Below are positions 1-15,346 of a stretch of DNA of 27,333 bases, piece after piece. This DNA is from a virus. The stretch lies in IMG/VR virus record IMGVR_UViG_3300025914_000039, positions 1-27,333 of that record, one strand, 5' to 3'. A program made the translations under genes and the position numbers. The notes beneath the pieces were generated by a model. It was given only the letters and a program-made list of their open reading frames with translations, did no database searches and had not been told where the DNA came from. The number at the start of each line of letters is the position of its first letter. Position 1 is the first letter of the stretch.

Positions 1-752
1 TGCCACCGATTGCGTTCATAGAACTCGGAACATTCGGCGTACGGATTGATCGGAACCCGGTCAAGCAAGAAGACCTTTAACGGCGGACACATCCAACCTT
101 TGCGTACTCGCGGGTGTTCAAGTTGCCATTCGGTAAACCCACCGTACGTTGAATGTGGGCGAAGCTTTTCATTCGTGGTGAAGGCGCGCTTACGCATTAA
201 CCCGATACCGCCGATTGAGTCGCACTTCGCATACCCGACGCAATCTTTCGGAATAGCTGATGCAGGTGCAGTTTGAATTTTTCCGCCTGTCGTAGCACTC
301 GTGTAAAAGACTGTTCCTTCACGTTCAGGTGCGGGCTTTCGCACCATGCGATTGCTTGACGGAACCCGGCTTTCAGGCGGTTCGATGCCTAGAAGGTCAA
401 GTTCAGGATTTTCATCAAAGACCCGGATGCACTTCGTCAACCAACCAGGAGGAACAATCACATCGTTATCGATCTTGGCAAAAATATCAGTTTCGCAGGC
501 GTCGGCAAACGCATTCATGACCGCAGCGGGTGCCCCGTATCCGCCCGCCGTATCAATCGCGATGTCGACGAACTTTGACATCTTTGCCGCCCAATCCGAA
601 AGATGTTCGGCAGTGCCGTCAACACTTCCGTCGTCGACGATTAGCATCTTGTGAACGAGTCCCCAATCTGTGTTTTGATACAAAGACTCTAGCGACTCAA
701 TCGTGAACGCAAGACGATTCTTCGCAACGAACAGAAGTGTGATTTTTGACAT
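1..752 (-). CDS. Family 2 (GT-A fold) glycosyltransferase, 3' end cut by the window
   Basis: An open frame runs from ATG at 752 to the first base of the window with no stop, giving about 250 residues of an incomplete protein. The N-terminus (MSKITLLFVAKNR) followed by LIVDDGSVDGT is the classic nucleotide-sugar binding start of GT2 enzymes. AKIDNDVIVPPGWL supplies the DxD-like metal and sugar-nucleotide motif near residue 110. These enzymes transfer a sugar from an NDP-sugar to a glycan or protein acceptor in the cytoplasm. The gene begins 11 nt after the deacetylase stop and is the last visible member of the glycan cassette. No Shine-Dalgarno site is visible; TAAGAT lies 7 nt before the ATG. 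The family call is firm; donor and acceptor are unknown. Confidence 0.85.
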   Translation of the reverse strand, partial: MSKITLLFVAKNRLAFTIESLESLYQNTDWGLVHKMLIVDDGSVDGTAEHLSDWAAKMSKFVDIAIDTAGGYGAPAAVMNAFADACETDIFAKIDNDVIVPPGWLTKCIRVFDENPELDLLGIEPPESRVPSSNRMVRKPAPEREGTVFYTSATTGGKIQTAPASAIPKDCVGYAKCDSIGGIGLMRKRAFTTNEKLRPHSTYGGFTEWQLEHPRVRKGWMCPPLKVFLLDRVPINPYAECSEFYERNRW

Positions 753-762
753 TAAACAAATC

Positions 763-1350
763 TTACTGCACGCGCCTGACGTACTCTTCAAGACCGCGTG
801 CAAAGTGTGGCCAACAACCTAATGCATCAATCTCGATTTGGGTTTTATAGCAAAGCATTGCCTTCAGTTTGGTGGCAACGGACTTGCCGTCCATCTTGAC
901 AGGTTCGCCGTACTTCGACTTGCCGTTCGTCCGCGTGTAGGTGAAGTACTCCCAAACGGCAACGCCATGATCGAGGAACACCCGTCGCGCCACTTGTGCG
1001 ACAAGGTTGTGTTGATCGTGACCATTCGGTTCAAGAGCGGGAATCCAAACATTCACAAACTTGTGGTCATCACGGTATGAGATCAAGGCTTTTTCTAAGC
1101 GCGTCACAAGTTCACCGTCGACTGGTGCAGAATCGTCGAGTCCTAAGAACTGAATTTCAGCACCGAGTATCGTGACAGCGTCGCGGTCTTCGTCGCGCCT
1201 GACGTCAAGCGAGCAATCAGCGTGCCCGCGTTTCACCTGCACGTACGAATCAAATACCGTCAGCACAAGCGGTTTATGCTGTTGGATTGTAAATGCGCCG
1301 AACAATCCAGCATCGTCGTTATGGGGGGAAATAAAAAGGTTATCGTTCAT
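763..1350 (-). CDS. PIG-L/LmbE-family N-acetylsugar deacetylase
   Basis: A 195-residue protein starting MNDNLFISPHNDDAG. The SPHNDD segment (residues 8-13) matches the family's AHPDD(E) zinc and catalytic motif. NGHDQHNLV (H111, H114) matches the downstream HxxH zinc motif, and the intervening RRDEDRDAVTILGA matches the conserved R-E-LG stretch. Members of this family remove acetyl groups from N-acetylglucosamine-type sugars or small thiols, using zinc. The last residue of the usual AHPDDE motif is replaced (NDDAG), which may change activity. The start overlaps the 3' end of the preceding gene by 11 nt, so translation is probably coupled. Next to two glycosyltransferase-like genes, the likely role is trimming an acetylated sugar in the same glycan. 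Confidence 0.75.
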   Translation of the reverse strand: MNDNLFISPHNDDAGLFGAFTIQQHKPLVLTVFDSYVQVKRGHADCSLDVRRDEDRDAVTILGAEIQFLGLDDSAPVDGELVTRLEKALISYRDDHKFVNVWIPALEPNGHDQHNLVAQVARRVFLDHGVAVWEYFTYTRTNGKSKYGEPVKMDGKSVATKLKAMLCYKTQIEIDALGCWPHFARGLEEYVRRVQ

Positions 1351-1981
1351 AGGGTGGTAGTGCTTTCACTTTCATGATGTTTTGGTTTCGTTTGCGGGCT
1401 TCGTAAAGGCGGACAACTTCAAGCTTGCGTAATAGTTCTTCAAGGTCCGCGAATTCACGGTCGCGATCAATTTGTTCGCGTGTACTGATTTGCAGGTGGT
1501 CTACCCGACGTGTCGGCACAGATTCAAGACGAACACGTTCACGATTCATTGATGTGAAGATCAAGTCGGCGTTTTCAAGGAACGACTGATCAGTTTTGAA
1601 GTATTTCCAAAACACACCAAACACTTCGACCGTGAACTTTGGAGCAATCACACCAGTGCCGACACGACAGCAATCGAACATCGTGAAGGCACTAGTTTTT
1701 AGATTGAGCGTATCGTTGACGAGAACTTCGCCCGCGTCAGGATTGTAGAGGTATGCAAGCGCGGCGGCATCGACAACATGTTCGTCATCCTGCACGTAAA
1801 CGTGTTGTTTGGTCGCACCGCGCATGCCTTGGAACTTGCCGAACTTCTTTTGGTTGATCAGTACTTTCGAATTGTCAAAGACGATCGTTTCGCCGAAGCC
1901 CGCCAACGAATCGGTAATCGCTTTGATGTTGCGGTACCCGTCCGTCACAACAACGGCGGTAACGTCGGCGATCGAGATCAT
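1340..1981 (-). CDS. Probable glycosyltransferase, GT-A-like
   Basis: A 213-residue protein. Its N-terminus VTAVVVTDGYRNI with ETIVFDNS resembles the first Rossmann-like strand and loop of GT-A glycosyltransferases, and YVQDDEHVVD (residues 62-71) fits the acidic metal/sugar-nucleotide motif. The spacing is shorter than in typical GT2 enzymes, so it may be a compact or divergent member. The C-terminal 60 residues are charged and helical (LEELLRKLEVVRLYEARKR). The start codon overlaps the upstream stop as ATGA and is preceded by GGAGGT about 9 nt away, the best Shine-Dalgarno site in this cassette. Function is inferred from the motifs and from its place between the deacetylase and a GT-D gene. 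Confidence 0.6.
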   Translation of the reverse strand: MISIADVTAVVVTDGYRNIKAITDSLAGFGETIVFDNSKVLINQKKFGKFQGMRGATKQHVYVQDDEHVVDAAALAYLYNPDAGEVLVNDTLNLKTSAFTMFDCCRVGTGVIAPKFTVEVFGVFWKYFKTDQSFLENADLIFTSMNRERVRLESVPTRRVDHLQISTREQIDRDREFADLEELLRKLEVVRLYEARKRNQNIMKVKALPPYER

Positions 1982-2214
1982 GCCTTGTTGACCTCCGTGA
2001 CAGGTGCAGGCGGAACCATCACTTCAAACGTGCGTTCAAATTGCGAGGTTTCGCCGATTGTCCATTTCAGTACGTCCGCCATTTGTTCAAACGCGGAAAC
2101 GCGATGATCGCCCGCGCGTTTGAACAGCACAGCTTGCTTTTCGATCAATCCGATTGCCGTCTTAATGTCGGCAACTGAACGTCCGTTGATTGTTTCGGGT
2201 TTTTGATCAGACAT
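1978..2214 (-). CDS. Small hypothetical protein (78 aa)
   Basis: Start chosen at ATG 2214 (MSDQKPETINGRSVADIK). The frame stays open upstream, but the sequence there belongs to the GT-D gene. The product is an acidic, helical protein with a segment DIKTAIGLIEKQAVLFKRAG and no recognised domain. It is translationally coupled to the downstream GT-like gene by an ATGA overlap. No Shine-Dalgarno site is present. Instead a TATAGT box stands 6 nt before the ATG, inside the 3' end of the upstream gene, so it may begin its own leaderless transcript. Confidence 0.6.
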   Translation of the reverse strand: MSDQKPETINGRSVADIKTAIGLIEKQAVLFKRAGDHRVSAFEQMADVLKWTIGETSQFERTFEVMVPPAPVTEVNKA

Positions 2215-2215
2215 G

Positions 2216-2230
2216 CCCGTACTATACGGG
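2216..2230 (-). promoter_or_regulatory. Candidate leaderless promoter with perfect inverted repeat
   Basis: On the minus strand the sequence reads CCCGTATAGTACGGG followed by C and the ATG at 2214. It contains a TATAGT -10-like box (2226-2221) exactly 6 nt before the start codon. It is also a perfect 6 bp inverted repeat with a 3 nt spacer. The 11-mer CCGTATAGTAC recurs in front of the gene starting at 6413. No convincing -35 box is visible, so a phage sigma factor or activator may be needed. Confidence 0.45.
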
Positions 2231-2962
2231 AAGTCCGACGAGACGGCGCGCTTGTGCACGGGTTAGCTGCTGCCTGCGGCTTTGCCCACGAAACAACGGA
2301 TCGAGTGCGGACCCAAGGTTGATGTACGTCTTTTCCGGAAAAAGATTCCATGTACGAATTGCCGGAATATTGCCCGCCATACCTGCACCGAAGACAAGAA
2401 TTTCGAAATCGAGAACTTGCAACATGTCGGTTAGCTTGTTCGTTGCAGCAAACAATCCGGTCATCGGCGTCGGCAAAAATTCTGCACCTAACCACGTAGC
2501 AGCGTCACGGTTTCCTTCAGGACCCATGTACAGCTTTTTACGTGGGTCCTCGCGAAGTGTCCGATAGAAATTAGCAAGTGCGGAAGACTGCCGCATGAAA
2601 AGCAGTGCTTCAAAATGCATGAACTGCAAAGACTGATGCGCCATCGAAAGCAGTAGTTCCCATTGCGCCTCATATCGTGAAGGATCACGCGGACCTGAGA
2701 ACGATGCTGTCGCCCAATCCCCTAGCGATACGTTCATCGCGTATTTCGGTCCGGAGTTCACGACAGCATTAAAGCAGTGCATCAATTCTTTAGCAAGATC
2801 CGCACTGTACTTTTCGCCGTCGCACGTCTGCCCGATCTTACCCTTCACGAGTTCAATCAAGCCATCACCAAACCGCCAGTACGAAAGCGGTTCTTGTCGG
2901 TTCAATCGGTTTGTCAAAATGCATGCGGTCTCGTCGGCGTTCCAGTGTGATCTAACTTTCAT
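2222..2962 (-). CDS. GT-D-fold (DUF1792-like) glycosyltransferase
   Basis: A 246-residue protein. SYWRFGDGLIELVKG (residues 27-41) matches the N-terminal RFGDGE signature of GT-D-type glycosyltransferases. Near the C-terminus EILVFGAGMAGN (187-198) and INLGSALDPLF (214-224) match the family's second nucleotide-binding strand and the glycine/aspartate end motif. Known relatives transfer hexoses to glycans or glycoproteins. The usual acidic residue after GDG is replaced by Leu-Ile-Glu, so the metal ligand may be shifted by two positions. The start overlaps the methyltransferase gene by 11 nt. The fold assignment is by motif only. Confidence 0.6.
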   Translation of the reverse strand: MKVRSHWNADETACILTNRLNRQEPLSYWRFGDGLIELVKGKIGQTCDGEKYSADLAKELMHCFNAVVNSGPKYAMNVSLGDWATASFSGPRDPSRYEAQWELLLSMAHQSLQFMHFEALLFMRQSSALANFYRTLREDPRKKLYMGPEGNRDAATWLGAEFLPTPMTGLFAATNKLTDMLQVLDFEILVFGAGMAGNIPAIRTWNLFPEKTYINLGSALDPLFRGQSRRQQLTRAQARRLVGLPV

Positions 2963-3590
2963 CTGTTACCCCAATCCTTACTGTCCCTTTTGTTGTTGCG
3001 ACCACACCCCAACCAAGTGGCCACAAGTCGCGACCGACGCGAACGTTTGCCCGATTCACAACGCGCACAACATCATAGTCGGCGCGTCGCAATTCATCGC
3101 AAAGCCCCTTGCACGTCAGTCGATATCGATCATCATCTTCGACAACAGGCCAATTCGTCGGACCTGTCATGATCAATGTACCCGCACACGAAAGCGGGAA
3201 TAGAAGCTTGAAGTTCATCAAGAACCTGTAGACGCCGTACATCGTGTATTGGATTACTTGCGTGCACAGGATCGTATTGAAGTACCCGGACGGAATCGGA
3301 TCACCTTTGTCGAACCCGACGTATTCGCCTGCAATGAGATCGCGGTAAGGGCTTGGCTTGCGGCATGTACCGGGCTTGCCGCATCCGAAGTCAAGGACAC
3401 GTCCGGTCTTCATGCGGTCCTTTTCTTCTGTGACGAACTGGCGGATCGATGCAAGTTCCGTCTTGCGAATCCAATCAAGTTGATGTCCACCGTCTTCTAA
3501 TGAAATAAGCCCAACTTGCGTTGTGATGTTCGCGCCATATGCGTCACGAACAAGATTCGTGTCTGATTCGACAGTTAATGGAAATTTCAA
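2952..3590 (-). CDS. Class I SAM-dependent methyltransferase
   Basis: The core motif GRVLDFGCGKPGT gives the SAM-binding glycine loop, followed by YVGFDKGDP (acidic end of strand 2) and ILCTQVIQYTMYGVYRFL (post-motif strand 4 region). The C-terminus GWGVVATTKG is typical of the last strand. The frame is open further upstream (to GTG 3680), but that part is read in another frame by the neighbouring gene. A TTG at 3590, overlapping the upstream TGA and preceded by GAGGG at 7 nt, is the likeliest start, giving 212 residues. The substrate is unknown. Together with two other methyltransferases here, it probably acts on a sugar or sugar-nucleotide of the same pathway. Confidence 0.7.
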   Translation of the reverse strand: MKFPLTVESDTNLVRDAYGANITTQVGLISLEDGGHQLDWIRKTELASIRQFVTEEKDRMKTGRVLDFGCGKPGTCRKPSPYRDLIAGEYVGFDKGDPIPSGYFNTILCTQVIQYTMYGVYRFLMNFKLLFPLSCAGTLIMTGPTNWPVVEDDDRYRLTCKGLCDELRRADYDVVRVVNRANVRVGRDLWPLGWGVVATTKGTVRIGVTDES

Positions 3591-3940
3591 ATCGATACCC
3601 TCACTGATGCGCCCGGACACGCGCGACACGCTTCTAACAGATTTTCGAGCCACGGAACAAAATCTTCGTATGTGCCCCACTTATTGGGTGCATCAAACTT
3701 CCGGAATCGTACCGGGTCTGCCTTCATCAGTTTGATTGCGGTATCGAGCGGTTCAATCAGGTGTTCGGCAAGCTTGACACCAACCTGTTCCGGGTGCCAC
3801 AGGTGCTTGTAGATACCTGCTTCATCCGCCATCGCGCCTAGGTTATGCGTGATGTTTGCATCATAGTCGGAAACCTGCGGGAGTTCGCCGCCGCAATGTG
3901 GGCATGTTGTTGGCGCAGAAAGATAAATGTCAAGACTCAT
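3587..3940 (-). CDS. Phage protein with N-terminal zinc-knuckle (CPHCGG)
   Basis: A 117-residue protein from ATG 3940 (MSLDIYLSAPTTCPHCGG), overlapping the upstream stop as ATGA. It has the features of a hypothetical phage family: a CPHC pair at the N-terminus, then NITHNLG, a tryptophan-rich middle, WGTYEDF, and a C-terminus ending ACRACPGASVRV. Members occur in many tailed phages with no established role. Two C-terminal cysteines (ACRAC) could complete a zinc site. It sits between two methyltransferases, but no enzymatic motif is visible. Confidence 0.7.
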   Translation of the reverse strand: MSLDIYLSAPTTCPHCGGELPQVSDYDANITHNLGAMADEAGIYKHLWHPEQVGVKLAEHLIEPLDTAIKLMKADPVRFRKFDAPNKWGTYEDFVPWLENLLEACRACPGASVRVSI

Positions 3941-4536
3941 GGTTTCTCCCAAATGCCGACAAGCGTTTTGCAGAAATTGCCGTCGACATCGTTTTCGAAG
4001 ATCTGCCGCCGCACTTGCCGAAGATTCGTATAGGACAGGTGTTGATCAAGCTGTTCTTCAGTCAAGCTGTGATCATGCACGAGGTTCAGCATGTCGGCGG
4101 GTCGTAAATGAACGTGGCAGTAGAAGCGCCCGCCCGGATTCAGCAGACACCAGATTTTCGGGATCAGATGAAAACCCATCTCACCGTGATCGAGTGCGTT
4201 TGTCGTGATTATTGCGTCGAAGCGATCGTTCGTTTCCCAGTGTTCGAACGGTTCCGACACTTCTAAAATGCCGTTGCGATCTTCACGAATGCCCGCCGCG
4301 TCATAGACGGCCAAAATTGAATCGACTCCAACTTTGATGTTTGCTCGAATGTAGGGCAATAATCCCCAATACGGACCGACGCCGATTTCAACAACCCTGT
4401 CAAACTTGCACGTATCAAGCCCGAAGACGCTGACGTACTGTTCAAGCTTCGCGCGTTCCTCCGCGTACCCGTCTTTCTTGAACTCTTCACACCAGAAACG
4501 AAGTTCAAGCAATTCTTTATGCGTTAGATGAATCAT
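3937..4536 (-). CDS. SAM-dependent methyltransferase
   Basis: A 199-residue protein from ATG 4536 (MIHLTHKELLELRFW), chosen because it overlaps the upstream TGA as ATGA and has GGAAAGG about 8 nt before it. RVVEIGVGPYWG is the SAM-binding loop, KVGVDSI the acidic strand-2 end (Asp), and DAIITTNALDHGE plus LLNPGGRFYCHVHL are the motif IV and post-IV regions of class I methyltransferases. The C-terminal third contains a helical stretch that could hold the acceptor. The substrate is unknown, but the setting in a glycan cassette points to O- or N-methylation of a sugar. Confidence 0.75.
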   Translation of the reverse strand: MIHLTHKELLELRFWCEEFKKDGYAEERAKLEQYVSVFGLDTCKFDRVVEIGVGPYWGLLPYIRANIKVGVDSILAVYDAAGIREDRNGILEVSEPFEHWETNDRFDAIITTNALDHGEMGFHLIPKIWCLLNPGGRFYCHVHLRPADMLNLVHDHSLTEEQLDQHLSYTNLRQVRRQIFENDVDGNFCKTLVGIWEKP

Positions 4537-4721
4537 CCGTGTTGACCTTTCCACCAACAATCTGAAATTGTTGATCCCCACTTTTTACGATTCTGCAAGT
4601 AGTGGGCGCGATCCTGCAAGTAAAGACGAACACGATGCATGACATTTTGCGAGATGTCTAAAGGATTTTCATCTTCAAGCAAAATCAAAATGAACAACAC
4701 CGTCAATGCAGGGTCCGCCAT
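4533..4721 (-). CDS. Small hypothetical protein (62 aa)
   Basis: It begins at ATG 4721, which shares its A with the upstream TAA stop, and ends in an ATGA junction with the next methyltransferase, so it lies in a translationally coupled chain. The N-terminus MADPALTVLFILILLEDE is hydrophobic but short and followed by acidic residues. The rest is basic and aromatic-rich (RVRLYLQDRAHYLQNRKKW). No family is recognised. Coupling on both sides supports expression. Confidence 0.5.
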   Translation of the reverse strand: MADPALTVLFILILLEDENPLDISQNVMHRVRLYLQDRAHYLQNRKKWGSTISDCWWKGQHG

Positions 4722-5392
4722 TACTTCACCGCTTCTAAAAGCAAGAATAGCTTTCGACGATCGGGTGCATTACGTGCGTAGGAAATCGGGTTCCAGTCTA
4801 CGCCGCTGTCGCCGCCGATCGTGCGGAATAACGCCGTGATACCGTACGCTTCGCCAAAGCGCCCACGTTCATCACGCGGGTTATTCCAACGTTCATCCAC
4901 ATAGTACCGAAGGTCCTGCGTGTAGACGGCGGAATGCGTGGGATCACACCAGACTGCGATACCAGGAAAGCACGGAACAATCAGTTCAAGCACGCCACCC
5001 GGTTTTAATACACGGTGGCATTCGTTCAAGAAGTGAATGACGCCGTTGTAAGGCTTGATGTTGACATTCACAAGAAGCTGAACGGGAAGATTTACGCTAA
5101 TGCCGAACTGTTCTTTGCACACCGGACACCGTTTCGCAATCGACGAATTCAAAACAGTTTCATGAAAAAGCTTGCCGCAACTTGAACACATCCATTGCTT
5201 TTCGAGCCAATAGCCGTTACCGATGTGTTCGGCGATATCTTTTGCAAGGATTGCGGCAACGCTGCTGTCGTCCCAAGGCCAACGTGGTGCACGAAGATCG
5301 CAAATGACATCCGCAGGTGGTGCGACGTCAACGGAGGTCCACCCGTCGCGCTTATCATCCGAACTTCCAAGATTAAGACGTAGAGAACTCAT
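4721..5392 (-). CDS. SAM-dependent methyltransferase with inserted zinc ribbon
   Basis: A 223-residue protein. LRLNLGSSDDKRDGWTSVDV is the SAM-binding loop and acidic strand-2 region, VAAILAKDIAEHI corresponds to motif IV, and FLNECHRVLKPGGVLELIV is the typical post-motif helix and strand. Between motif IV and that helix (residues about 69-93) is an extra zinc-ribbon-like segment, CSSC and CPVC separated by about 20 residues, not found in the standard fold. The C-terminus (RRKLFLLLEAVK) closes the sheet. This is the first gene of a transcription unit: a strong terminator lies just upstream and a TATAAT box stands 5 nt before its ATG. Confidence 0.75.
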   Translation of the reverse strand: MSSLRLNLGSSDDKRDGWTSVDVAPPADVICDLRAPRWPWDDSSVAAILAKDIAEHIGNGYWLEKQWMCSSCGKLFHETVLNSSIAKRCPVCKEQFGISVNLPVQLLVNVNIKPYNGVIHFLNECHRVLKPGGVLELIVPCFPGIAVWCDPTHSAVYTQDLRYYVDERWNNPRDERGRFGEAYGITALFRTIGGDSGVDWNPISYARNAPDRRKLFLLLEAVK

Positions 5393-5397
5393 ACGGA

Positions 5398-5403
5398 ATT
5401 ATA
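5398..5403 (-). promoter_or_regulatory. -10 box TATAAT, 5 nt before ATG (leaderless start)
   Basis: On the minus strand GTATAATTCCGT precedes the ATG at 5392. The consensus -10 hexamer at this distance puts the expected transcription start at or beside the start codon, and no Shine-Dalgarno site is present. It follows the terminator at 5412-5440 directly, as expected for a new transcription unit. A -35 match is not obvious. Confidence 0.55.
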
Positions 5404-5411
5404 CAGAGGCA

Positions 5412-5440
5412 TAAAAATGCCCGGTACCGAAATACCGGGC
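5412..5440 (-). terminator. Rho-independent terminator
   Basis: The minus strand reads GCCCGGTA, a 6 nt loop TTTCGG, TACCGGGC, then ATTTTTAT. This is a perfect 8 bp GC-rich stem followed by five T residues. It lies 31 nt after the stop of the gene at 5731-5471 and before the promoter of the methyltransferase gene at 5392. The T run is only on the minus-strand side, fixing its direction. Confidence 0.85.
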
Positions 5441-5470
5441 GCGTAATCGGATGAATCGGTGCGTTTCGGT

Positions 5471-5731
5471 TTACGAGACTGGTTCAATCCAACCTTGATC
5501 CCAGTACCGCTGTAAGATCGTGATCGCCGTTGCCGTGTAGACAGACGCAGGTGGTGTGGCGTCATACGGCAGTGTATCGCCTGCATTGTATGTCGTGCCA
5601 AGAAACTCAAGGTTTCCGCGCACCACTTTGTACTGTACAGGTGACGATTGATCGGGTTCAAAATTCCGCCACCCGAGACCGTCGATGTACTTGCGTGATC
5701 CGATGTTGTGATCAGTGTAGGCTGTTCCCAT
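5471..5731 (-). CDS. Hypothetical protein (86 aa)
   Basis: It starts at ATG 5731 with a clear Shine-Dalgarno site (GAAAGGA, about 7 nt upstream) inside the 3' end of the DUF115-like gene. The sequence is soluble, aromatic and rich in Tyr, Gly and Thr, with a short motif KYIDGLGWRNFEP and a C-terminus RYWDQGWIEPVS. It resembles small phage structural or tail-associated proteins in composition only; no family is recognised. It is the last gene before the strong terminator. Confidence 0.6.
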   Translation of the reverse strand: MGTAYTDHNIGSRKYIDGLGWRNFEPDQSSPVQYKVVRGNLEFLGTTYNAGDTLPYDATPPASVYTATAITILQRYWDQGWIEPVS

Positions 5732-6413
5732 TTTTAATCCTTTCGAGTGCCACAGATAACGGTAAGTGTGGCCAACAAGTCAACCCGCTATCGGGTGTGC
5801 AGTTAACGACTTCGATTCCGCGCGCTTGCAAGGGTTCAACAAGCGTTGGGAAATTCGGCAAGAACTTATTCTTGATTGTATTCGCATACGTGCCCGACCG
5901 TTGTTCGTGGTGCCAATGAAAACGCTTTGCATCGTCGCGCATGTCGTACCCGAGTAGTAAGATCCGTTTCACGCCGAAGTGTACGGCAAGGTGAATTGCT
6001 TGATAGCCGCTGTTCTTTCCGTGACGTATACAACCTGGATCAGGATCAAAACCCGTCTGTCCCGTGAGTTTCAATGATCGTATAAACGGGTGTGCGTCGA
6101 AATCACGGTTTGCTGTGATCCATCGTGATTCAAATGGTTCTCTACGAAACGCCGCCGAATAGGTGTCATGAAAGCAAATCGGAAATTTAATTGCTCTCCG
6201 ATTCATGCGTTCTTGATTGCGCCACCATGTGGTGTCTTGAAAGTAGAAAACGTCAGCACGCGGAAACAGCCGCCATGAATCGTTAATGGTGATGATGTTC
6301 GGAAACCATCCATCAACTTGAAGGGATTCCGGATCGAGACCTTCGATCGAAAGCCCGCCCGCAATTATTAATGCTGTCTCGTTTTCCCACGAACGCGGAA
6401 CAGTCCAAATCAT
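5712..6413 (-). CDS. DUF115/MptE-like putative glycosyltransferase-related protein
   Basis: A 233-residue protein. ETALIIAGGLSIEGLD at the N-terminus and KNSGYQAIHLAVHFG followed by RILLLGYDMR match the two nucleotide-binding segments of the DUF115 (MptE-like, motility accessory factor) and GT42-like fold. Members of this group modify flagellin or surface glycans, or act on nucleotide-linked substrates. WHHEQRSG and other histidines near the second motif may be active-site residues. A shorter homologue is encoded at 14943-14380. The ATG is preceded at 5 nt by TATAGT rather than a Shine-Dalgarno site, so it probably begins a leaderless transcript. Confidence 0.6.
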   Translation of the reverse strand: MIWTVPRSWENETALIIAGGLSIEGLDPESLQVDGWFPNIITINDSWRLFPRADVFYFQDTTWWRNQERMNRRAIKFPICFHDTYSAAFRREPFESRWITANRDFDAHPFIRSLKLTGQTGFDPDPGCIRHGKNSGYQAIHLAVHFGVKRILLLGYDMRDDAKRFHWHHEQRSGTYANTIKNKFLPNFPTLVEPLQARGIEVVNCTPDSGLTCWPHLPLSVALERIKNGNSLH

Positions 6414-6428: not shown

Positions 6429-7583
6429 TTATTTCCAAATCAGTTGATAGCAGACCGGGTGCATAGATTCCGTCATCGGAAGCATTGGCGGACACGGCAC
6501 AGAGCTTGCCTGCACGCCTAGCGTTCCTGACGGAGTGCCGACAGGCGCAAGAAGCATGATAAAGTCCCCGGACGGAGAACTAGCGTCAAGCGGTGCTGTT
6601 CCCGTACCTGATCCTGATACCGCAGGCGCGGCAATTCCGACGCCGCCCGATTGACCACCACGAAGTAAGACAGACCCGGATTGCCCCGCTGACGTACCGG
6701 AACGGAACCCGCCGACGATAAGACCATATGATCCATCACCCGTACAGGTGTCGCACGTTGCGGTGGTGCCCGTTCCTGTTCCCGTTGCTACAGCACCAAA
6801 CGCTAACTTAATACATGTTGGGTTACTCGCAAGAACATCAGGCGCAAGGTTGCCGCACGGAACAACGCCTTTGCTGTATAGCGGCATTGATGTCGTATCA
6901 GTGCCATCACCTGTCGGAAGTTCTAAAAAGATGACTGTGCCGTTCGTCGTGGGTCCGACAAACCCTGTCGTTCCGATATTGATTGATCCAGCATAGGTAG
7001 TTGACGACTTCAACCCGGTACCGTACGTGATAGTGCCATCGACAATCAATCCGTTCTTTCCATCACTATGCACGCCCGGATACGGGTCTGTCGGTGGCAC
7101 CACTACAGGCACCGCAACAACGTCAATTGCATCGACGATGGCGTTGCGTACGATCGTAGTAAACGTGATCGTGATACCAGTGCCACCCGTCGCCACGACT
7201 GGAAAATCGCGGTTGATTGGGTTGTTGAAGAACGTGACTGCAAGCATATCGAATGATGCCAGCACCTTCGTACCGTTGATAGCGACGTCAAAGATTCGTT
7301 GCCCGACACTGGTGACAGACGCGGAGTTCTCACGAAAATGCAGCGTGACCGTATAGGCACCGTCCGGAACATTGAACTTGTAAAAGAAGTTGCCGCCGCG
7401 AACTGTTTTCCAAAAATCGGATTCACCAGGGTTTGGTGCGACAGATTGCAGATACGGCGTGCCGCCCGTATAAAATGCGTCCGCCTGATAGATGCTGGTT
7501 GCGGGTCCGCCTGCATTGATGTGAAGGGGTAACGTTTGTGCCGCCGCTGTGATCGTGAATGCCAGAACTAGAAAGAGTTTCAT
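6429..7583 (-). CDS. Exported malectin-domain protein
   Basis: A 384-residue protein. Residues 1-16 (MKLFLVLAFTITAAAQ) form a Sec signal peptide. The segment about 18-158 is a malectin-type carbohydrate-binding domain: LHINAGGPATSIYQAD, FFYKFNVPDGAYTVTLHFRE, RIFDVAINGTKVL and AIVDAIDVV follow the family order. A proline linker (VVPPTDPYPG) leads to a Gly/Thr-rich repetitive C-terminal region of about 200 residues with a few cysteine pairs (CDTCTGD) that resembles phage fibre or adhesin sequence. Malectins bind oligosaccharides. A signal peptide is unusual for a virion protein, so it may act at the host envelope. It is coupled to the upstream gene by ATGA. Confidence 0.7.
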   Translation of the reverse strand: MKLFLVLAFTITAAAQTLPLHINAGGPATSIYQADAFYTGGTPYLQSVAPNPGESDFWKTVRGGNFFYKFNVPDGAYTVTLHFRENSASVTSVGQRIFDVAINGTKVLASFDMLAVTFFNNPINRDFPVVATGGTGITITFTTIVRNAIVDAIDVVAVPVVVPPTDPYPGVHSDGKNGLIVDGTITYGTGLKSSTTYAGSINIGTTGFVGPTTNGTVIFLELPTGDGTDTTSMPLYSKGVVPCGNLAPDVLASNPTCIKLAFGAVATGTGTGTTATCDTCTGDGSYGLIVGGFRSGTSAGQSGSVLLRGGQSGGVGIAAPAVSGSGTGTAPLDASSPSGDFIMLLAPVGTPSGTLGVQASSVPCPPMLPMTESMHPVCYQLIWK

Positions 7584-7851: not shown

Positions 7852-8241
7852 TTAACTCCTCAATTTCTTGACTCGAAAATTCGATGTAAAGTTCGGACGT
7901 GATTTCGGATCGCGCCACGTACCCGGACCAAAACCCATTGATTGGATGAACGCGTATCCTGTCAGATATCCGGTGTGCGTGTCTTGCGCATCTTGCAGAT
8001 AGTCGAAAACCTCTTTCCACTTCGCACGCGCGCCGACATAATCGTCACGAACACCGCGCACACGCATCGAAAGCCCGACCATTTCGTTCTCGCGATTCAG
8101 GGTATCTGCCGCCCAACCAATGGTTTCGAACAAGCCAATCACCTGATCTTGATCATCGGTCATGTCGCCTTTCTGCATTTTCCAACCAGCAGAAACAACG
8201 CCGCACGCCACAAGAAAACTAAACACGTCGTCAAGCATCAT
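7852..8241 (-). CDS. Tail-terminator / minor capsid-type protein
   Basis: A 129-residue protein (MMLDDVFSFLVACGVV) with AAGGA before the start and an ATGA-type overlap with the gp10-like gene. The length, the position right after an HK97 gp10-like gene, and a mixed alpha/beta pattern with a central RENEMVGLSMRVRG strand and AYIQ/GYAFIQSMG segment fit the tail-completion/minor capsid proteins of siphophages. No specific motif proves this. If correct, it caps the tail tube at the neck. Confidence 0.5.
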   Translation of the reverse strand: MMLDDVFSFLVACGVVSAGWKMQKGDMTDDQDQVIGLFETIGWAADTLNRENEMVGLSMRVRGVRDDYVGARAKWKEVFDYLQDAQDTHTGYLTGYAFIQSMGFGPGTWRDPKSRPNFTSNFRVKKLRS

Positions 8242-8636
8242 GAAAGCACGTCCTTGATTGCTTCCGCGATTTCGCCCGGATATTCTGGCGTCAATTCACG
8301 CGCGGGAATTTCTAGGTACTTCGGACCCGAACCGGGACGCGTCCAATTTTTTGGTGTTAAGTCTTCGTGCACCTGCAACGCGTAACCCGCCGACGGTCCG
8401 CCGTACCCTAGTACAGTTGTGATCGTTGACCCGTCAATCACCGGAAGCTGTACGTGTCCGGTAGACATCAACGTTCCAGTGTCAACAGGAACGTACTGTT
8501 CCTTCGAACGCGCCATGATGCGTTCACCAAACTGAAACTGTCGTGCCGCGATTGCCTGTGCAATCTTTCCGACAAGCCCATCAAGCTTCGCCTTTACAGC
8601 GTCAACACCTTCGATTTGAAAATCGATTGAAGCCAT
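8238..8636 (-). CDS. HK97 gp10-like head-tail joining protein
   Basis: A 132-residue protein. It begins with a charged helix (VDAVKAKLDGLVGKIAQAI) and carries YVPVDTGTLMSTGHV near residue 48, the hallmark P-V-D-T-G-x-L motif of HK97 gp10/minor tail proteins. GGPSAGYALQVHEDL and PKYLEIPARE follow as in the family. These proteins join the head connector to the tail. The ATG overlaps the upstream TAA by one base. The gene order (connector, closure, gp10-like, terminator) supports the call. Confidence 0.8.
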   Translation of the reverse strand: MASIDFQIEGVDAVKAKLDGLVGKIAQAIAARQFQFGERIMARSKEQYVPVDTGTLMSTGHVQLPVIDGSTITTVLGYGGPSAGYALQVHEDLTPKNWTRPGSGPKYLEIPARELTPEYPGEIAEAIKDVLS

Positions 8637-9916: not shown

Positions 9917-10606
9917 TTACCCCTTCTTTTCGAATGAAATTTCAATCATGCTGCCGCGTGCTGCTTTCTTGAGATCTGCACGCGACCACGAAGAATAAAC
10001 GTCGTGTTTACTTGTGACCGGAATCTTCGGGAAGATTGCCGCTGCCCCTGTGATCGCAGGGAAGAGAAACGAACCCGGTGTTCCTGTCGGAGGTCCCCAA
10101 ATTTCAACCTTGCCGACAAGCGTTTCGATCAAGACGCCGTGTTCCGGGCAATCAACCACGCGCCCTTTGAAATCGTTCGGCGTCCAAAAATGATTTTGCG
10201 GAACTGCGCTGTTGTCGTCGTTCTTCGCGAAGATAGCAAGCTTGCGACGCCAGAAACTTTTACTGTTTGTAGTAGTGACGTCGACAACTTCCGGACGTGT
10301 GGTCATTGGTCCGGTATACAAACGACGTGTCGTCGTAATGGAATTATTTCTGAAGACATCGTATGTGCGGACGATTCCGGTTTCCGTGTTCGCATATGCG
10401 ACGTACTTGATTTCGACGCCGTCGAGGAAAACGATTCCTCCGTGCGATTCACGGATTGTAGGCGGGTCGAAGTGATCGGAACGGTAGTCGACAACGCCGT
10501 AAAAGCGTTTTCGATTTGTAAAGCGCGGGCCTTCAGTTTTAGATTTCGCGATACCCGTTGCAGCGATCGCGGCACTCAATGACGAGAAAAAAGATCGGCG
10601 ATTCAT
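9917..10606 (-). CDS. Tat-signal protein with capsid-like C-terminal segment
   Basis: A 229-residue protein of unknown function. MNRRSFFSSLSAAIAATGIA is a canonical twin-arginine signal: RRSFF, then a weakly hydrophobic stretch of 13 residues. The body is beta-rich. Residues 192-212 (FP..PV..K.D....WSRADL) match residues 35-55 of the major capsid protein at 12 of 21 positions without a gap. No ribosome-binding site is visible; TAAAAT lies 6 nt before ATG, sharing the stop of the tailspike gene. It sits between the fibre block and the connector gene. It could be exported, or the RR segment could serve a virion role; the sequence favours a Tat signal. Confidence 0.65.
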   Translation of the reverse strand: MNRRSFFSSLSAAIAATGIAKSKTEGPRFTNRKRFYGVVDYRSDHFDPPTIRESHGGIVFLDGVEIKYVAYANTETGIVRTYDVFRNNSITTTRRLYTGPMTTRPEVVDVTTTNSKSFWRRKLAIFAKNDDNSAVPQNHFWTPNDFKGRVVDCPEHGVLIETLVGKVEIWGPPTGTPGSFLFPAITGAAAIFPKIPVTSKHDVYSSWSRADLKKAARGSMIEISFEKKG

Positions 10607-10615
10607 GCATCAATT

Positions 10616-12760
10616 TTAGCCGTACATCGTCAGTTCGTGCACGCCGACAATGCTTCCGCTTACATTTGCTGTGATGTACAGCCGATAGTACGCGTATGAT
10701 GTCGAGTTTGAAAACGTGAACTTTACCGGAGTGAATAACGGCAAATCCGTGTAGTTGGTTTGCGTGTCAAGATCAGTCCACGTACTGCCGTCATTCGATC
10801 CTTGAAAAACCCAAGTCTTCGGAGAATGACCGGGAAAGTTGTCAAAACTCCACGTCGTGATGTCGTAGGAGGTCACAACCTTGCCCGATGAAAATTGGTA
10901 TTGAAGCCACTGCGGAAGCGAACTTCCATCGGATGCCCACCCTAAGATCGTTGTGGACTCCGGCTGTTGTGCAAATGCCCACCACGGCTGAAGAGTGCTA
11001 AAAGTACTCGACGCGGAAACCGTACCAGACGGCGCAGTCGTGCTCGTCATCTTCGGCATGAAGTTCGTTGGGAATCCTGCCAAACGATACGGCGCGCGCC
11101 CGATCTTTATTGACGGGCTTAGCGTCTCATCTGAAAGGTACATCACACCGCTTGCGACTGCTGCATCCGGAACACGAAACCGCATGCAGGCATTACCGCT
11201 GATCGGTCCGATATGCGCGTACAGCGCTGTCGTGACAAGCGACTTGATGTTTGACGCATCAATATCGTTGATTTCAAGTTGCCCGATCGATCCGCCCGGA
11301 GCATGAAACAACCAATTCGTGAACCCGTAGTTGCCGGAAAAATATGTCGGATTGATCGGGTCTATGATCCGCAGTCCATTAACACTCATGCGGTTTACAA
11401 CGCTGCTGTGGTCGACAAAAATCATGCCCGCTGAATTGGTGCTGTAATCCCGGTAAATCGTAAAGTTGCGGAAACTTAAACTGTTGATCTTTCCCTGTAC
11501 CGAACTGAACGTTACAGCTTGCCCGCCGTCGATAGGCGTCCAAGTACAGTTTGAAATTTGAAGGTCCCCGACCGGATCACCAAGCAAGTCTACAAACTGC
11601 GTTGACCGGAAACGGCAGTTATCTAGCTGTACGTTTTGAATCCAATCAACATCAGTTGATCCGGAATTTGCATTGCCTAGACGAATTGCTGCGTCAGAAG
11701 AAAGAGAAATTCCCGCTGTGTAGCCTGAGCAATTGCTCATAACCACGTCACGAACTTTTGCACGATGCGAGGAATCAAAGATCGAATAGCACCGCATTGC
11801 CGTCAACGTGCCCTTGAACGTGCAATTCGTGATCGCCACCCGCGTAATATCGCCGCTGTAACCTTCGGGCGCATTTAATGCAATGGCGTCGTCACCGTTA
11901 TTGTCAAAAAAGCAATCTTCAATCCGTACGTCGTTCGCGGGTCCGTTCACGTGTACGCCGTCACAGTTGACAGTATGGAAATCGTCACGCGTGCTTGCAT
12001 TACGAACATCGATGTTTCCACAGTTATCGAACGTGATGCTGAAAGTCGGTGGGTTTAAAACACGAACATTTTCAATGAGAATGTTGTTCATGTTTGTAAC
12101 CCAAATTCCATAAATCCATTCACCACTCGGTTTCAAACGTGGATCAGATCCCGAAGAATTTGCGGCGCGATTGCAGTTTATGAACATGTTGCGAATCGTC
12201 ACGTTCGCACCGCGTGAAGGTATCGATCCGCCCGGAGTCCCCGCTACTAAATCGGTATCGCAACGAATGGCGTGCTGACTCGATCCGGCTTTCATACAAA
12301 TCCCCGTGTCGAGTCCATTACTTTCAAGCGTAACGTGCCCACCTGATGGTATTAAAAGACCTGTCACGAGTGCGCCACCGTCAATCACAAGCCGCACGGG
12401 TGCGGTTGCAACTGCTGTTGCAAGTGCATTATTTATGATGGTAGTGTCATCAGTCGCGGTACCGCCGCCGATTTTCGCGCCTGTCGTCACATCGCAGTCA
12501 AGCGCGCAACCGAGAGCGGACGCGTAAAGCACCACAGTTGACCCGCTGTTGCTTCCATCAGCGCCGTCTGCACCTGCGGGTCCTTGATCCCCCTGCGGTC
12601 CTTGCGGTCCCTGTGGGCCTTGTTCGCCCTGAATGCCTTGTTCGCCTTGAATTCCTTGTTCGCCTTGCGGTCCTTGCGGTCCTGTAAAACCGCGCGGTCC
12701 TTGTGGTCCCACAGATCCCCCACTTCCGCTACCTTCGCCAATGACGATAGAAGCACTCAT
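10616..12760 (-). CDS. Collagen-like tailspike/fibre: beta-helix plus discoidin domain
   Basis: A 714-residue protein with three parts. Residues 18-69 are Gly-X-Y repeats of PQG/EQG type (collagen-like stalk). Residues about 95-480 contain repeated ...NCxF/V.. turns ([34 protein letters not shown]), the right-handed parallel beta-helix pattern of pectate-lyase-like tailspikes and depolymerases. The last 140 residues, with [39 protein letters not shown] and [10 protein letters not shown], form a discoidin (F5/8 type C) sugar-binding domain. The N-terminus [12 protein letters not shown] resembles the start of the next fibre (MSETVVIGAGSG), so both may share a docking peptide. It probably binds or cleaves a surface polysaccharide. 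Confidence 0.8.
12554..12709 (-). repeat. Collagen-like Gly-X-Y repeat region in the tailspike gene
   Basis: The codons for residues 18-69 form a run of 9 nt-periodic repeats. On the plus strand they appear as tandem copies of CCTTGCGGT and CCTTGTTCG variants. They encode Gly-Pro-Gln, Gly-Glu-Gln and Gly-Ile-Gln triplets, which form trimeric triple-helical stalks in phage fibres. Such repeats change length easily by slippage. Confidence 0.85.
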
Positions 12761-12772
12761 GCATTATTTACC

Positions 12773-14041
12773 CTATGCAACTAACCAGTGAAATACTTCC
12801 ATGAAAACCTTAAGACCCGTATTACTGTTATCAATCGCGATACCAAGCTGTGTCGGCGTGATCCCTAACGCCGATCGCGTTGTGGTGGTGAACACCTGCA
12901 TTGCGTCAAGACTCGGTCCACCCGAAACAGTAATGTTAGTTCCATCATCCGTGATTGAAACGAACCAAGGATTGCTAATTAAAAACGACGATTGTGTAAT
13001 CTGTGATCCACCGTTAGTCGTCAGGGTTGTGAATGTGTAGGCACCCATTCCGAGACTACTTACACGTGTGGGTCCTGCAATGAAAACCTTTGTGCCGTTC
13101 GAAATCGCAACGCCAGTTAAAACGGCGTCGGCATTCGCACCCGCTAGCAGCATTCCGATCGTGAACGTATACGGCGTTGATGGGTAAGCTGAAAGTCGAA
13201 GAAACCGGACCGAGTCGCCTGAATTAGTCGGTGCCATCAACAGCAACGCGCCATTCGTTAGTGTGGTGGCTGTTGCACCACCCTGATTAAGAAAAGTAAG
13301 CGTGCTAACGTCTGGTGGTTTTGTGACCGCATGAATCGGACCCATGAAGCCCGAACCAATCCCGATGTACGGTGATACCGCCGTCACAGTTGAACCACTG
13401 CTTCCGGATTCTCCCGAAACGTTGATATTCCAACTCGCGATGGTTCCGGAACCACCTGTCAGCGTCACGTTGATGACGAGTGTTGTACCCGAATAGCTGG
13501 TACAAAGTCCTTCGACGAAGTTGGCACCGTTTGACGAGTCTGATGCACGCACACGGGCACCCGCCGAATATGCAAGTCCTGACTGCGTCGTAAAGGACTT
13601 CGACCCGGTCGCAATAGCGATCGAACTTGTCGACGTCGCCGCGTACCCTGCACCCGCCGCGCCATTCGTGCCGTTTGTTCCGTTCGTGCCATTGCTGCCC
13701 GCCGCGCCCGTTGCGCCCGTCGCGCCGACATCACCAGCAAGATTGATATCCCAACTCGCAATAGTGCCCGAACCACTCGCAACAGTGGCTAAAATCGTCA
13801 GCGTGGTTCCCGAATACGCGGTACAAAGACCTTCAACATAGTTTGTTGGGGTCGATGCATCGCTAACACGGACACGTGCACCCACGGAGTACGCAAGTCC
13901 CGATTGCGTCGTGAATGATTTGCTTCCGGTTCCGATCGCTACAGAACTTGTCGACGTTGCGAGGTATCCAGCACCCGGTGCACCATCCACGCCCGGAGTT
14001 CCGCCGCCGCTACCTGCACCAATTACGACTGTTTCACTCAT
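12773..14041 (-). CDS. Collagen-like fibre protein with duplicated 80-residue domain
   Basis: A 422-residue protein. After MSETVVIGAGSGGG come residues 24-103 and 131-210, two copies of an 80-residue beta domain (ATSTSS.AI.TGSKSFTTQ, AYS.GARVR.SD, YSGTTL, SGTIASW.IN). They are separated by a collagen-like linker (106-130, GATGATGAAG then NGT repeats). The 200-residue C-terminal part is a Thr/Ser/Gly-rich beta region ending FMEVFHWLVA and may be the receptor-binding tip. The 80-residue unit is common in phage tail and fibre proteins. GGGGGTG precedes the ATG, which overlaps the upstream stop. It likely forms a trimer. The many Ser/Thr residues are possible glycosylation sites. Confidence 0.75.
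   Translation of the reverse strand: MSETVVIGAGSGGGTPGVDGAPGAGYLATSTSSVAIGTGSKSFTTQSGLAYSVGARVRVSDASTPTNYVEGLCTAYSGTTLTILATVASGSGTIASWDINLAGDVGATGATGAAGSNGTNGTNGTNGAAGAGYAATSTSSIAIATGSKSFTTQSGLAYSAGARVRASDSSNGANFVEGLCTSYSGTTLVINVTLTGGSGTIASWNINVSGESGSSGSTVTAVSPYIGIGSGFMGPIHAVTKPPDVSTLTFLNQGGATATTLTNGALLLMAPTNSGDSVRFLRLSAYPSTPYTFTIGMLLAGANADAVLTGVAISNGTKVFIAGPTRVSSLGMGAYTFTTLTTNGGSQITQSSFLISNPWFVSITDDGTNITVSGGPSLDAMQVFTTTTRSALGITPTQLGIAIDNSNTGLKVFMEVFHWLVA
13412..13651 (-). repeat. Second copy of the duplicated fibre domain
   Basis: It encodes residues 131-210 of the fibre protein, about 70-75% identical in protein to residues 24-103 (DNA 13733-13972). The DNA copies share long near-identical stretches around the codons for GSKSFTTQSGLAYS, so the duplication is fairly recent or maintained by gene conversion. 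Confidence 0.75.
13655..13726 (-). repeat. Collagen-like linker repeats in the fibre gene
   Basis: It encodes GATGATGAAGSNG followed by three NGT triplets between the two 80-residue domains. At DNA level it appears as GTTCCGTTC/GTGCC and GCCCGTCGC type short repeats. Confidence 0.7.
13733..13972 (-). repeat. First copy of the duplicated fibre domain
   Basis: It encodes residues 24-103 of the fibre protein, the partner of the copy at 13412-13651. It includes YLATSTSSVAIGTGSKSF and YVEGLCTAYSGTTL. Confidence 0.75.
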
Positions 14042-14379: not shown

Positions 14380-14943
14380 TCAGACCCGTCGTGGGAACGC
14401 ATCAATCAAGCTTTTTAAATTGTGGTTCGTCACTGTAACGCCCGCCGCGATCAGTTGCGGAATCATCGTTCGGAAACGCGGACGCCATTGTGCAAATTTG
14501 TCTTCGTCGGAAGCCATGTCGTACCCGACGAGATGAATGTCTTGCGAGCCCTTCAAGACAGCTAGGTTAATGGCGGCATAGCCGCTATTCCCGCCGACGC
14601 AAAGAAAATCAGGCATCGTAGACAGTCCGTCAAAGTGGGCGCGTTCTAGCACCTTTAAACCGTCAATGCGGGTGCATTCAGGCCATGTATCAAGCGCGAG
14701 CGTTGCGTATTTCTCACCCGCATGTGCTGCGATCGTTTCGCGGTTATCAAGTATCCACTTCGGATCAGCAGAAAACAAAATCAAAGACGACGGAACAGGC
14801 GGACGCTTTAGGCGTGCCGCCGCTCCATTGATCGAAACAACACGCTTGCCGTCAAGCCGCGTACTGTCAAAGTCCACAACCGACGGTCCGTTTGCAACGA
14901 TCCAGACTTCTTTCCAATACGGTGGCGCGACTCGACTATACAT
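14380..14943 (-). CDS. DUF115-like putative glycan-modifying protein (second copy)
   Basis: A 187-residue protein from ATG 14943 (MYSRVAPPYWKEVW); a TTG at 14961 would add six residues. VWIVANGPSVVDFD, then GGNSGYAAINLAVLKG and IHLVGYDMASDE, match the two nucleotide-binding motifs also seen in the gene at 6413-5712 (NSGYxAIxLAV and LGYDM). Both fit the DUF115/GT42-like fold. This copy is shorter and lies within the fibre block, immediately before the small beta-rich protein and the collagen-like fibres. Its location suggests it acts on the fibres; that is inference. The start overlaps the upstream stop by 8 nt. Confidence 0.6.
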   Translation of the reverse strand: MYSRVAPPYWKEVWIVANGPSVVDFDSTRLDGKRVVSINGAAARLKRPPVPSSLILFSADPKWILDNRETIAAHAGEKYATLALDTWPECTRIDGLKVLERAHFDGLSTMPDFLCVGGNSGYAAINLAVLKGSQDIHLVGYDMASDEDKFAQWRPRFRTMIPQLIAAGVTVTNHNLKSLIDAFPRRV

Positions 14944-15346
14944 CTTCTTCAAGTGCGGCAAGCCGCTTGATTAGTTCATCTTTCGTGCCGACAGTTGGCA
15001 AATCCTGCGTACCGCAAAGTTCGGAGAGGTCTTTTTTCGACAGCGCTTGTAATTCGGTCTCGTTGAAAATCTTGCGACGTACCGGAGCGTTGACACTCGA
15101 CGGTGCGCCGACTGTCCCGGAGACGGGCGTCTCTACGGGACTTGGTTGATCGGGCGCGAGATCGATTTTGTGCTGATCGTAAAGTAGACGCAACCACTGA
15201 TCGTTGACGACAGAGGTATCGAATACTTCCCCTTCTTTGAATACGCGGCGCGGTTCGCCACCCATGTCGATTCCTGCACTCGTCAGGACCACAAACTTCA
15301 TTGTCCTGTTGATCATCTTCGGATGCACTCGACAGTAAAGAGGCAT
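14936..15346 (-). CDS. Small protein with C-terminal SAP/HeH-like domain
   Basis: A 136-residue protein. The N-terminal half is beta-like (MKFVVLTSAGIDMGGEPRR, VFKEGEVFDTS), followed by a proline/valine-rich linker (SPVETPVSGTVGAPSS). Residues about 98-134 (ELQALSKKDLSELCG, then GTKDELIKRLAALE) fit a SAP or HeH-type helix-extension-helix domain, often nucleic-acid-binding. In phages such domains occur in small proteins encoded next to the major capsid protein. The ATG at 15346 lies just after the capsid stop; internal ATGs (MINRTMKF) are alternative starts. Confidence 0.6.
   Translation of the reverse strand: MPLYCRVHPKMINRTMKFVVLTSAGIDMGGEPRRVFKEGEVFDTSVVNDQWLRLLYDQHKIDLAPDQPSPVETPVSGTVGAPSSVNAPVRRKIFNETELQALSKKDLSELCGTQDLPTVGTKDELIKRLAALEEDV

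What the first reader, a model, noticed from the sequence alone, without database searches (positions are those of the whole stretch)
1..6413. Phage-borne glycan-modification cassette of at least eight enzymes
A GT2 glycosyltransferase (cut by the edge), a PIG-L/LmbE-type deacetylase, a GT-A-like protein, a GT-D-type glycosyltransferase, three SAM methyltransferases and a DUF115-like protein lie within 6.4 kb beside structural genes. Motifs for each are visible. Phages are known to glycosylate virion proteins or alter host surface sugars, but this combination (deacetylase plus three methyltransferases plus three or four transferases) suggests a complete route to a methylated, deacetylated sugar. 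The Ser/Thr-rich collagen-like fibres are plausible acceptors. That is inference.
Basis: partly seen in the sequence, partly recalled or inferred. Interest (0 to 1): 0.75.

Follow-up and report, generated by a model that had tools for sequence, protein, structure and literature searches.

The report
Swappable sugar-enzyme island in phage genome
An uncultured tailed phage carries a row of sugar-handling enzymes (glycosyltransferases, methyltransferases and a deacetylase) inside its particle-assembly genes, at a site where related phages carry different sugar-enzyme sets, so it probably decorates its own particle with a custom, changeable sugar coat.

Summary
Window 3-6413 (minus strand) is a tightly packed run of 12 ORFs, eight of them enzyme-like. 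Six are supported: GT2 (PF00535), PIG-L deacetylase (PF02585), a GT-D-fold protein (Z 13.9-15.0 to the three DUF1792 structures, next best 4.2), two class-I methyltransferases, and a DUF115-like protein (phrog_4603). The 'GT-A-like' protein has no support beyond a QDDE motif, and MT1 is only marginal. The GT-D protein has Leu where all seven aligned relatives have Glu (GDGE to GDGL), so its activity is uncertain.

The wider pattern is more informative than the list. In 14 related viral loci the DUF115-like gene lies just downstream of head-tail connector genes. The interval after it holds changing sets of glycosyltransferases, methyltransferases and other sugar enzymes; 72 ORFs upstream hold none. 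Some relatives have no cassette. In the window a terminator-like hairpin separates DUF115a and its neighbour from the rest.

Best reading: an accessory, fast-changing glycan island that modifies virion proteins. Acceptor and product are unproven. 'Complete route' is not supported: no nucleotide-sugar synthesis was found.

The parts
3..752 (-). GT2 glycosyltransferase, cut by the window edge
   Evidence: PF00535 E 8.7e-14; DND motif
763..1350 (-). PIG-L/LmbE-type de-N-acetylase
   Evidence: PF02585 E 5.6e-9; His10-Asn-Asp-Asp13 and His111-x-x-His114
   Evidence: no profile or fold support
1978..2259 (-). small ORF of unknown function (93 aa)
2222..2962 (-). GT-D-fold (DUF1792-like) glycosyltransferase with GDGL in place of GDGE
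2952..3680 (-). probable class-I SAM methyltransferase MT1 (marginal; start codon uncertain)
3587..3940 (-). small protein of phrog_4019, function unknown
   Evidence: E 1.5e-15
3937..4581 (-). class-I SAM methyltransferase MT2
4533..4721 (-). small ORF (62 aa), coding status uncertain
4721..5392 (-). class-I SAM methyltransferase MT3 with an inserted zinc-ribbon-like CxxC...CxxC stretch
5419..5440 (-). terminator-like hairpin (9-bp stem, UUCG loop, T-rich tail)
5471..5731 (-). 86-aa protein that also follows DUF115 in three relatives
5712..6413 (-). DUF115-like protein A (phrog_4603, putative glycosyltransferase)
   Evidence: E 8.3e-37
6429..7583 (-). malectin-domain protein between connector genes and DUF115-like A
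   Evidence: PF11721 E 8.7e-12
7852..8636 (-). head-tail connector (neck) genes that mark the site in relatives
14380..14961 (-).
   Evidence: phrog_4603 E 3.4e-14; conserved in five relatives

Best explanation
The stretch is an accessory glycan-modification island of a siphovirus-like phage, lying among the late virion genes between the head-tail connector genes and (as in relatives) the tail genes. Soluble enzymes made together with capsid and tail proteins would build and trim a short sugar chain on one or more virion proteins, using host nucleotide sugars. In this reading the DUF115-like proteins (A near the neck, B near the capsid) attach or extend a sugar, GT2 and perhaps GT-D lengthen it, PIG-L removes an N-acetyl group, and the methyltransferases cap hydroxyls. 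The set is exchanged between relatives, so each phage would carry its own glycan. Shown: gene content, six enzyme families, placement, variability between relatives, relatives without the island, no predicted membrane helices in the cassette enzymes. Inferred: that virion proteins are the acceptors, the order of steps, and the product.
For: Six of eight enzyme families supported. Near-contiguous genes. Connector homologues lie upstream of the DUF115-like gene in 14 IMG/VR loci, always on the same side. Sugar and methyl enzymes downstream but not upstream. Different enzyme sets in relatives and no cassette in RSP or L123. No cassette enzyme reaches 1.6 in 19-residue hydropathy, unlike membrane-bound O-antigen conversion enzymes. 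CcrColossus has DUF115 directly after a tail gene with two sugar transferases nearby. XacN1, which has two DUF115-like genes beside large genes, has at least two glycoproteins by proteomics. Precedent for sugar on phage capsid and tail-tube proteins.
Against: No acceptor or product known. No nucleotide-sugar synthesis recognised. 'GT-A' and MT1 not confirmed. GT-D lacks the conserved Glu. The enzyme role of the DUF115-like proteins rests on a family label; similarity to sialyltransferase structures is not significant (E 0.07-0.13). The XacN1 authors suspected other transferases, so that link is circumstantial.
Confidence: 0.55

Rival explanations
1. The enzymes alter the host's surface polysaccharide (a cytoplasmic precursor), blocking superinfection or stopping new particles from sticking to debris.
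For: GT2 has a weak phrog_841 match, GtrB-like O-antigen conversion (E 3e-5), and weak PDB matches to polyprenyl-phosphate sugar transferases. The phage's fibre 2 has GH28/beta-helix and F5/8C domains, so it probably meets a polysaccharide. In cyanophages similar clusters have been read as polysaccharide modification (PMC7824862).
Against: No membrane protein or flippase in the cassette. Placement among late virion genes, tied to the connector site in relatives, would act late in infection.
Confidence: 0.2
2. The enzymes glycosylate phage DNA bases to resist restriction.
For: Viral glycosyltransferases that hypermodify DNA are known (cited in PMC12619734).
Against: No hydroxymethylase or thymidylate-synthase-like gene recognised in the scanned proteins of the 45.7 kb known. 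The cassette lies among virion genes, not DNA-metabolism genes. The genome is incomplete.
Confidence: 0.05
3. The DUF115-like proteins are structural or assembly proteins, and the genes after them are a cargo slot of mixed purpose, partly degenerate, with no single glycan product.
For: 'Structural protein' labels for homologues in PAJU2 and Eowyn. In D3 the homologue sits between capsid and connector genes with no cassette. The terminator-like hairpin separates DUF115a and its 86-aa neighbour from the rest. The GT-D motif is altered.
Against: Cargo would be expected to be functionally mixed; what is recognised in relatives is dominated by sugar and methyl transfer. CcrColossus pairs DUF115 with sugar transferases at a different site. 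One relative has two DUF115-like genes in tandem in the slot (L031).
Confidence: 0.15

Closest known systems
Virion glycosylation by mycobacteriophages Che8 and Rita (Freeman et al. 2023, read only through papers that cite it: PMC11256854, PMC12619734)
   Same: Tailed phages with phage-coded glycosyltransferases and sugar on capsid and tail-tube proteins
   Different: Here several enzymes lie together between connector and tail genes with a deacetylase and methyltransferases; sugar on the virion is not shown
Chlorovirus PBCV-1 and megavirus self-glycosylation
   Same: Virus-coded transferases plus class-I methyltransferases that cap virion glycans (A064R, A061L)
   Different: Eukaryotic viruses; megavirus clusters include nucleotide-sugar synthesis, absent here
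DUF1792 GT-D domain of dGT1 (Streptococcus parasanguinis Fap1 glycosylation)
   Same: Same fold (Z 13.9-15.0); the known enzyme adds glucose to a sugar chain on a protein
   Different: 11-15% identity; GDGE motif reads GDGL; not fused to a GT-A domain
DUF115-like 'alpha-2,3-sialyltransferase' genes of Caulobacter phage CcrColossus and Pseudomonas phage D3
   Same: Same phrog_4603-type protein in or beside virion genes; CcrColossus has sugar transferases next to it
   Different: Different phages; no deacetylase or GT-D annotated in the stretch read
Pseudomonas phages KPP23/RSP and Roseobacter phages RDJL
   Same: Closest isolate capsid proteins, 41-43% identity
   Different: RSP has no annotated cassette between its capsid and tail genes

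Membership tests
PIG-L/LmbE de-N-acetylase (1350-763) | Profile match over the curated cut-off | tested here: met
   PF02585 37 bits, cut-off 28.2
PIG-L/LmbE de-N-acetylase (1350-763) | Zinc residues (HxDD and a later HxxH; positions known from MshB, own knowledge) | tested here: met
   His10, Asp12, Asp13, His111, His114 read from the sequence; Gln113 where Asp is usual
GT2 glycosyltransferase (752-3) | PF00535 match and DxD motif | tested here: met
   52 bits, cut-off 23.3; DND
GT-D (DUF1792) glycosyltransferase (2962-2222) | GT-D fold | tested here: met
   Z 13.9-15.0 over 210-212 residues, next chain 4.2; profile E 3e-7
GT-D (DUF1792) glycosyltransferase (2962-2222) | GDGE motif conserved in relatives | tested here: not met
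   GDGL in the window, GDGE in seven of seven relatives; the claim is therefore GT-D fold, not active GT-D enzyme
DUF115-like phage family phrog_4603 (6413-5712, 14961-14380) | Profile match | tested here: met
   E 8.3e-37 and 3.4e-14
GT42 sialyltransferase (label often given to these proteins) | Significant similarity to Cst-type structures | tested here: inconclusive
   CstII chains at E 0.07-0.13, N-terminal motif only
GT-A glycosyltransferase (1981-1340) | GT-A fold or profile | tested here: inconclusive
   no profile hit; model pLDDT 36
Class-I SAM methyltransferase (MT1, 3680-2952) | Rossmann methyltransferase profile | tested here: inconclusive
   13 bits; hhalign probability 51.6%
O-antigen (Gtr-type) conversion cassette | Membrane flippase and membrane transferase | tested here: not met
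   no hydropathy peak of 1.6 or more in the cassette enzymes; the cassette is cut at the window edge
Phage virion glycosylation system | Covalent sugar on virion proteins | not testable with these tools
   needs virions and mass spectrometry

The most novel reading that the evidence does not exclude
A lineage of tailed phages carries a modular glycan island at a fixed place between connector and tail genes, anchored by a DUF115-like enzyme, that gives each phage its own virion glycan (here methylated and partly deacetylated): a bacterial-virus counterpart of chlorovirus and mimivirus self-glycosylation.
Probability: 0.35. Interest if true: 0.75.

Novelty: new variant of a known kind. Interest (0 to 1): 0.55.

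Why it matters
[quoted passage not shown] A fixed genomic slot with exchangeable sugar enzymes would tell where to look, offer an explanation for phage surface diversity, and supply transferases and deacetylases that act in the cytoplasm on particle proteins. It also matters for annotation: phage DUF115-like proteins carry the label 'sialyltransferase', which the profile searches here do not support at significance.

Tried and rejected
Single-protein scans of IMG/VR with PIG-L, the 'GT-A' protein and GT-D gave nothing. tblastn in phage records found nothing for PIG-L, GT-D, 'GT-A' or GT2. The 'GT-A' model was unusable (pLDDT 36), and hhalign against a GT-A-like family from relatives gave 0.1%. 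PIG-L was absent from five close relatives and from 50 DUF115-bearing viral records, so the deacetylase is the unusual piece of this cassette; many of those records are fragments. An exact search for a longer contig across the left edge found none. Capsid relatives in bacterial and archaeal MAGs (several Acidobacteriota) showed no DUF115-like gene in the eight loci listed, so they did not help with function. The Freeman 2023 paper is not held. Promoter scan: fewer promoter-like sites than in shuffles, so no claim is made. Terminator-like sites as a class are also no more frequent than in shuffles; only the one strong hairpin is used.
Full report
WHAT THE WINDOW IS. The window is a 27,333-base virus record. 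Its recognisable genes all lie on the minus strand. Reading that strand, they run: portal (PF06074 E 1e-32), head morphogenesis, a protease with a 2H/2'-5' RNA ligase-like domain, HNH, scaffold, major capsid protein (phrog_1005 E 4.5e-76), a SAP-domain protein, DUF115-like B, two fibres, connector genes, a malectin protein, and then the stretch in question. The nearest isolate capsids are those of Pseudomonas phages KPP23/RSP and Roseobacter RDJL phages, 41-43% identity. A second record (IMGVR_UViG_3300009545_000048, G001) is 100% identical over 14,720 bases and adds 18.4 kb upstream, with a small terminase gene recognised by Pfam and a probable large one.

CHECK OF THE OBSERVATION. Twelve ORFs from 3 to 6413 are nearly contiguous, most neighbours overlapping by 1-94 bases, which suggests coupled expression. 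Six of the eight proposed enzymes are supported. GT2: PF00535 E 8.7e-14. PIG-L: PF02585 E 5.6e-9, over the cut-off. The DUF115-like protein is phrog_4603, E 8e-37. MT2 and MT3 are class-I methyltransferases by direct weak hits and by homology to relatives with clear Pfam matches. The GT-D protein has no Pfam hit of its own. Seven relatives were found with an alignment seeded on L038; their joint profile finds the DUF1792 structure 4phr at E 3e-7, and the predicted model (pLDDT 82) matches all three DUF1792 structures at Z 13.9-15.0, with the next chain at 4.2. In this protein the motif GDGE, present in all seven relatives, reads GDGL, so the fold is met but catalysis is in doubt. MT1 is marginal. 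The 'GT-A-like' protein is not supported by any test; its one detectable relative is a 29% identical gene upstream of the portal in the same virus.

A second DUF115-like gene lies at 14961-14380 near the capsid gene (phrog_4603 E 3.4e-14). It is found at that place in all five capsid relatives examined, one of them the near-identical record.

COMPARATIVE PICTURE. In 14 of the 80 loci kept, connector homologues of this window lie upstream of the DUF115-like gene, always on the same side, 0-1.3 kb away; two of the 14 (L047, L048) look near-identical. The interval after it varies. In L029 (record G005) it holds a methyltransferase-like protein and transferase-like proteins before the tail genes; in L030 several GT2 and GT4-like proteins and methyltransferases; in L031 a tandem DUF115-like gene, FkbM-type methyltransferases and a radical-SAM-like protein; in L037 a GDP-mannose-dehydratase-like protein. 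Pfam families in 50 ORFs downstream of DUF115 in such loci are dominated by GT2 (12) and methyltransferases, with single dehydratase, radical SAM, GT1, sulfotransferase and transaldolase hits; 72 ORFs upstream gave capsid, cement, tail terminator, tail and SAP families and one further MptE-like protein, but no transferase or methyltransferase (GT2 12/50 against 0/72, p 9e-6). The loci were chosen by DUF115 and some are related, so the p-value is indicative. GT2 was found in 28 of 50 DUF115-bearing viral records, PIG-L in none. The window's 86-aa protein also follows DUF115 in L018, L030 and L032. Capsid relatives without a cassette exist: RSP by its annotation and L123. So the island is accessory.

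BOUNDARY. Between the DUF115a/86-aa pair and MT3 lies a 78-base gap with a 9-bp hairpin, UUCG loop and T-rich tail (-16.7 kcal/mol, z -2.7), the longest and most GC-rich stem among the terminator-like sites listed in the window.

HOW IT MOST LIKELY WORKS. The cassette enzymes look soluble by a hydropathy check, lie among virion genes, and are tied to the connector site in relatives. The likeliest acceptors are therefore proteins of the particle being built. Known parallels: mycobacteriophages with glycosylated capsid and tail-tube proteins (cited in PMC11256854, and PMC12619734); jumbo phage XacN1, with at least two glycoproteins found by proteomics (PMC5852040) and two DUF115-like matches (its authors pointed to other transferases, so the link is circumstantial); chloroviruses and megaviruses, which cap virion glycans with class-I methyltransferases. 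The DUF1792 GT-D domain of dGT1 extends a sugar chain on the protein Fap1 (PMC5063993). The order proposed (DUF115 attaches or extends, GT2 and perhaps GT-D extend, PIG-L deacetylates, methyltransferases cap) is inference. No sugar-nucleotide synthesis gene was recognised among the proteins scanned from the 45.7 kb of this virus, so 'complete route' is not supported.

LIMITS. No acceptor or product is known, and the record ends inside GT2. The DUF115-like proteins might be structural: homologues in PAJU2 and Eowyn are so labelled. Their published label, sialyltransferase, rests on remote similarity that did not reach significance here. The host is unknown; capsid relatives at 36-45% identity occur in MAGs labelled as Acidobacteriota and several other groups, which is only a hint.

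VERDICT. Real, more than chance, and better described as one instance of an exchangeable glycan island at a fixed virion-gene site than as a complete pathway. New variant of a known kind.

Noticed in passing
window 20635-22218: A prohead-protease-like domain (PF14550) is fused to a 2H phosphoesterase / 2'-5' RNA ligase-like domain (PF13563 E 2e-12). Alignments over both parts are seen in relatives L004 and L016. 2H enzymes include phage anti-defence proteins (own knowledge), so this fusion deserves a look.
   Followed up: no
window 18429-18794: A Tlde1 / L,D-transpeptidase-like domain protein (PF10908 E 8e-11, over the cut-off) lies among head genes.
   Followed up: no
window 10616-12760 and 12773-14041: Fibre 2 has collagen repeats, a GH28/beta-helix part and an F5/8C domain; fibre 1 carries a stretch of about 80 residues twice. 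Both suggest contact with polysaccharide.
   Followed up: no
window 4721-5392: MT3 has an inserted CxxC...CxxC zinc-ribbon-like stretch that its aligned relatives lack.
   Followed up: partly
L014:15702-16322: A 29% identical relative of the window's 1981-1340 protein lies upstream of the portal gene in the same virus; family unknown.
   Followed up: partly
window 6429-7583: Malectin-domain protein with a hydrophobic N-terminus beside the cassette; a possible sugar-binding virion protein.
   Followed up: no
window 9917-10606: The protein begins MNRRSFF..., like a twin-arginine signal, unusual among virion genes.
   Followed up: no
HQ632857 32153-32782 (hit H99): Records named Tetraselmis viridis viruses (algal host) carry a phage-type DUF115-like gene; they may really be bacteriophages.
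   Followed up: no
model of window 2222-2962: The GT-D model also matches predicted giant-virus proteins (Homavirus, Moumouvirus), some annotated as GT2 or methyltransferase proteins.
   Followed up: no
L031:7992-9251: Two DUF115-like genes in tandem at the slot in one relative, as in XacN1 ORF374 and a second place.
   Followed up: partly
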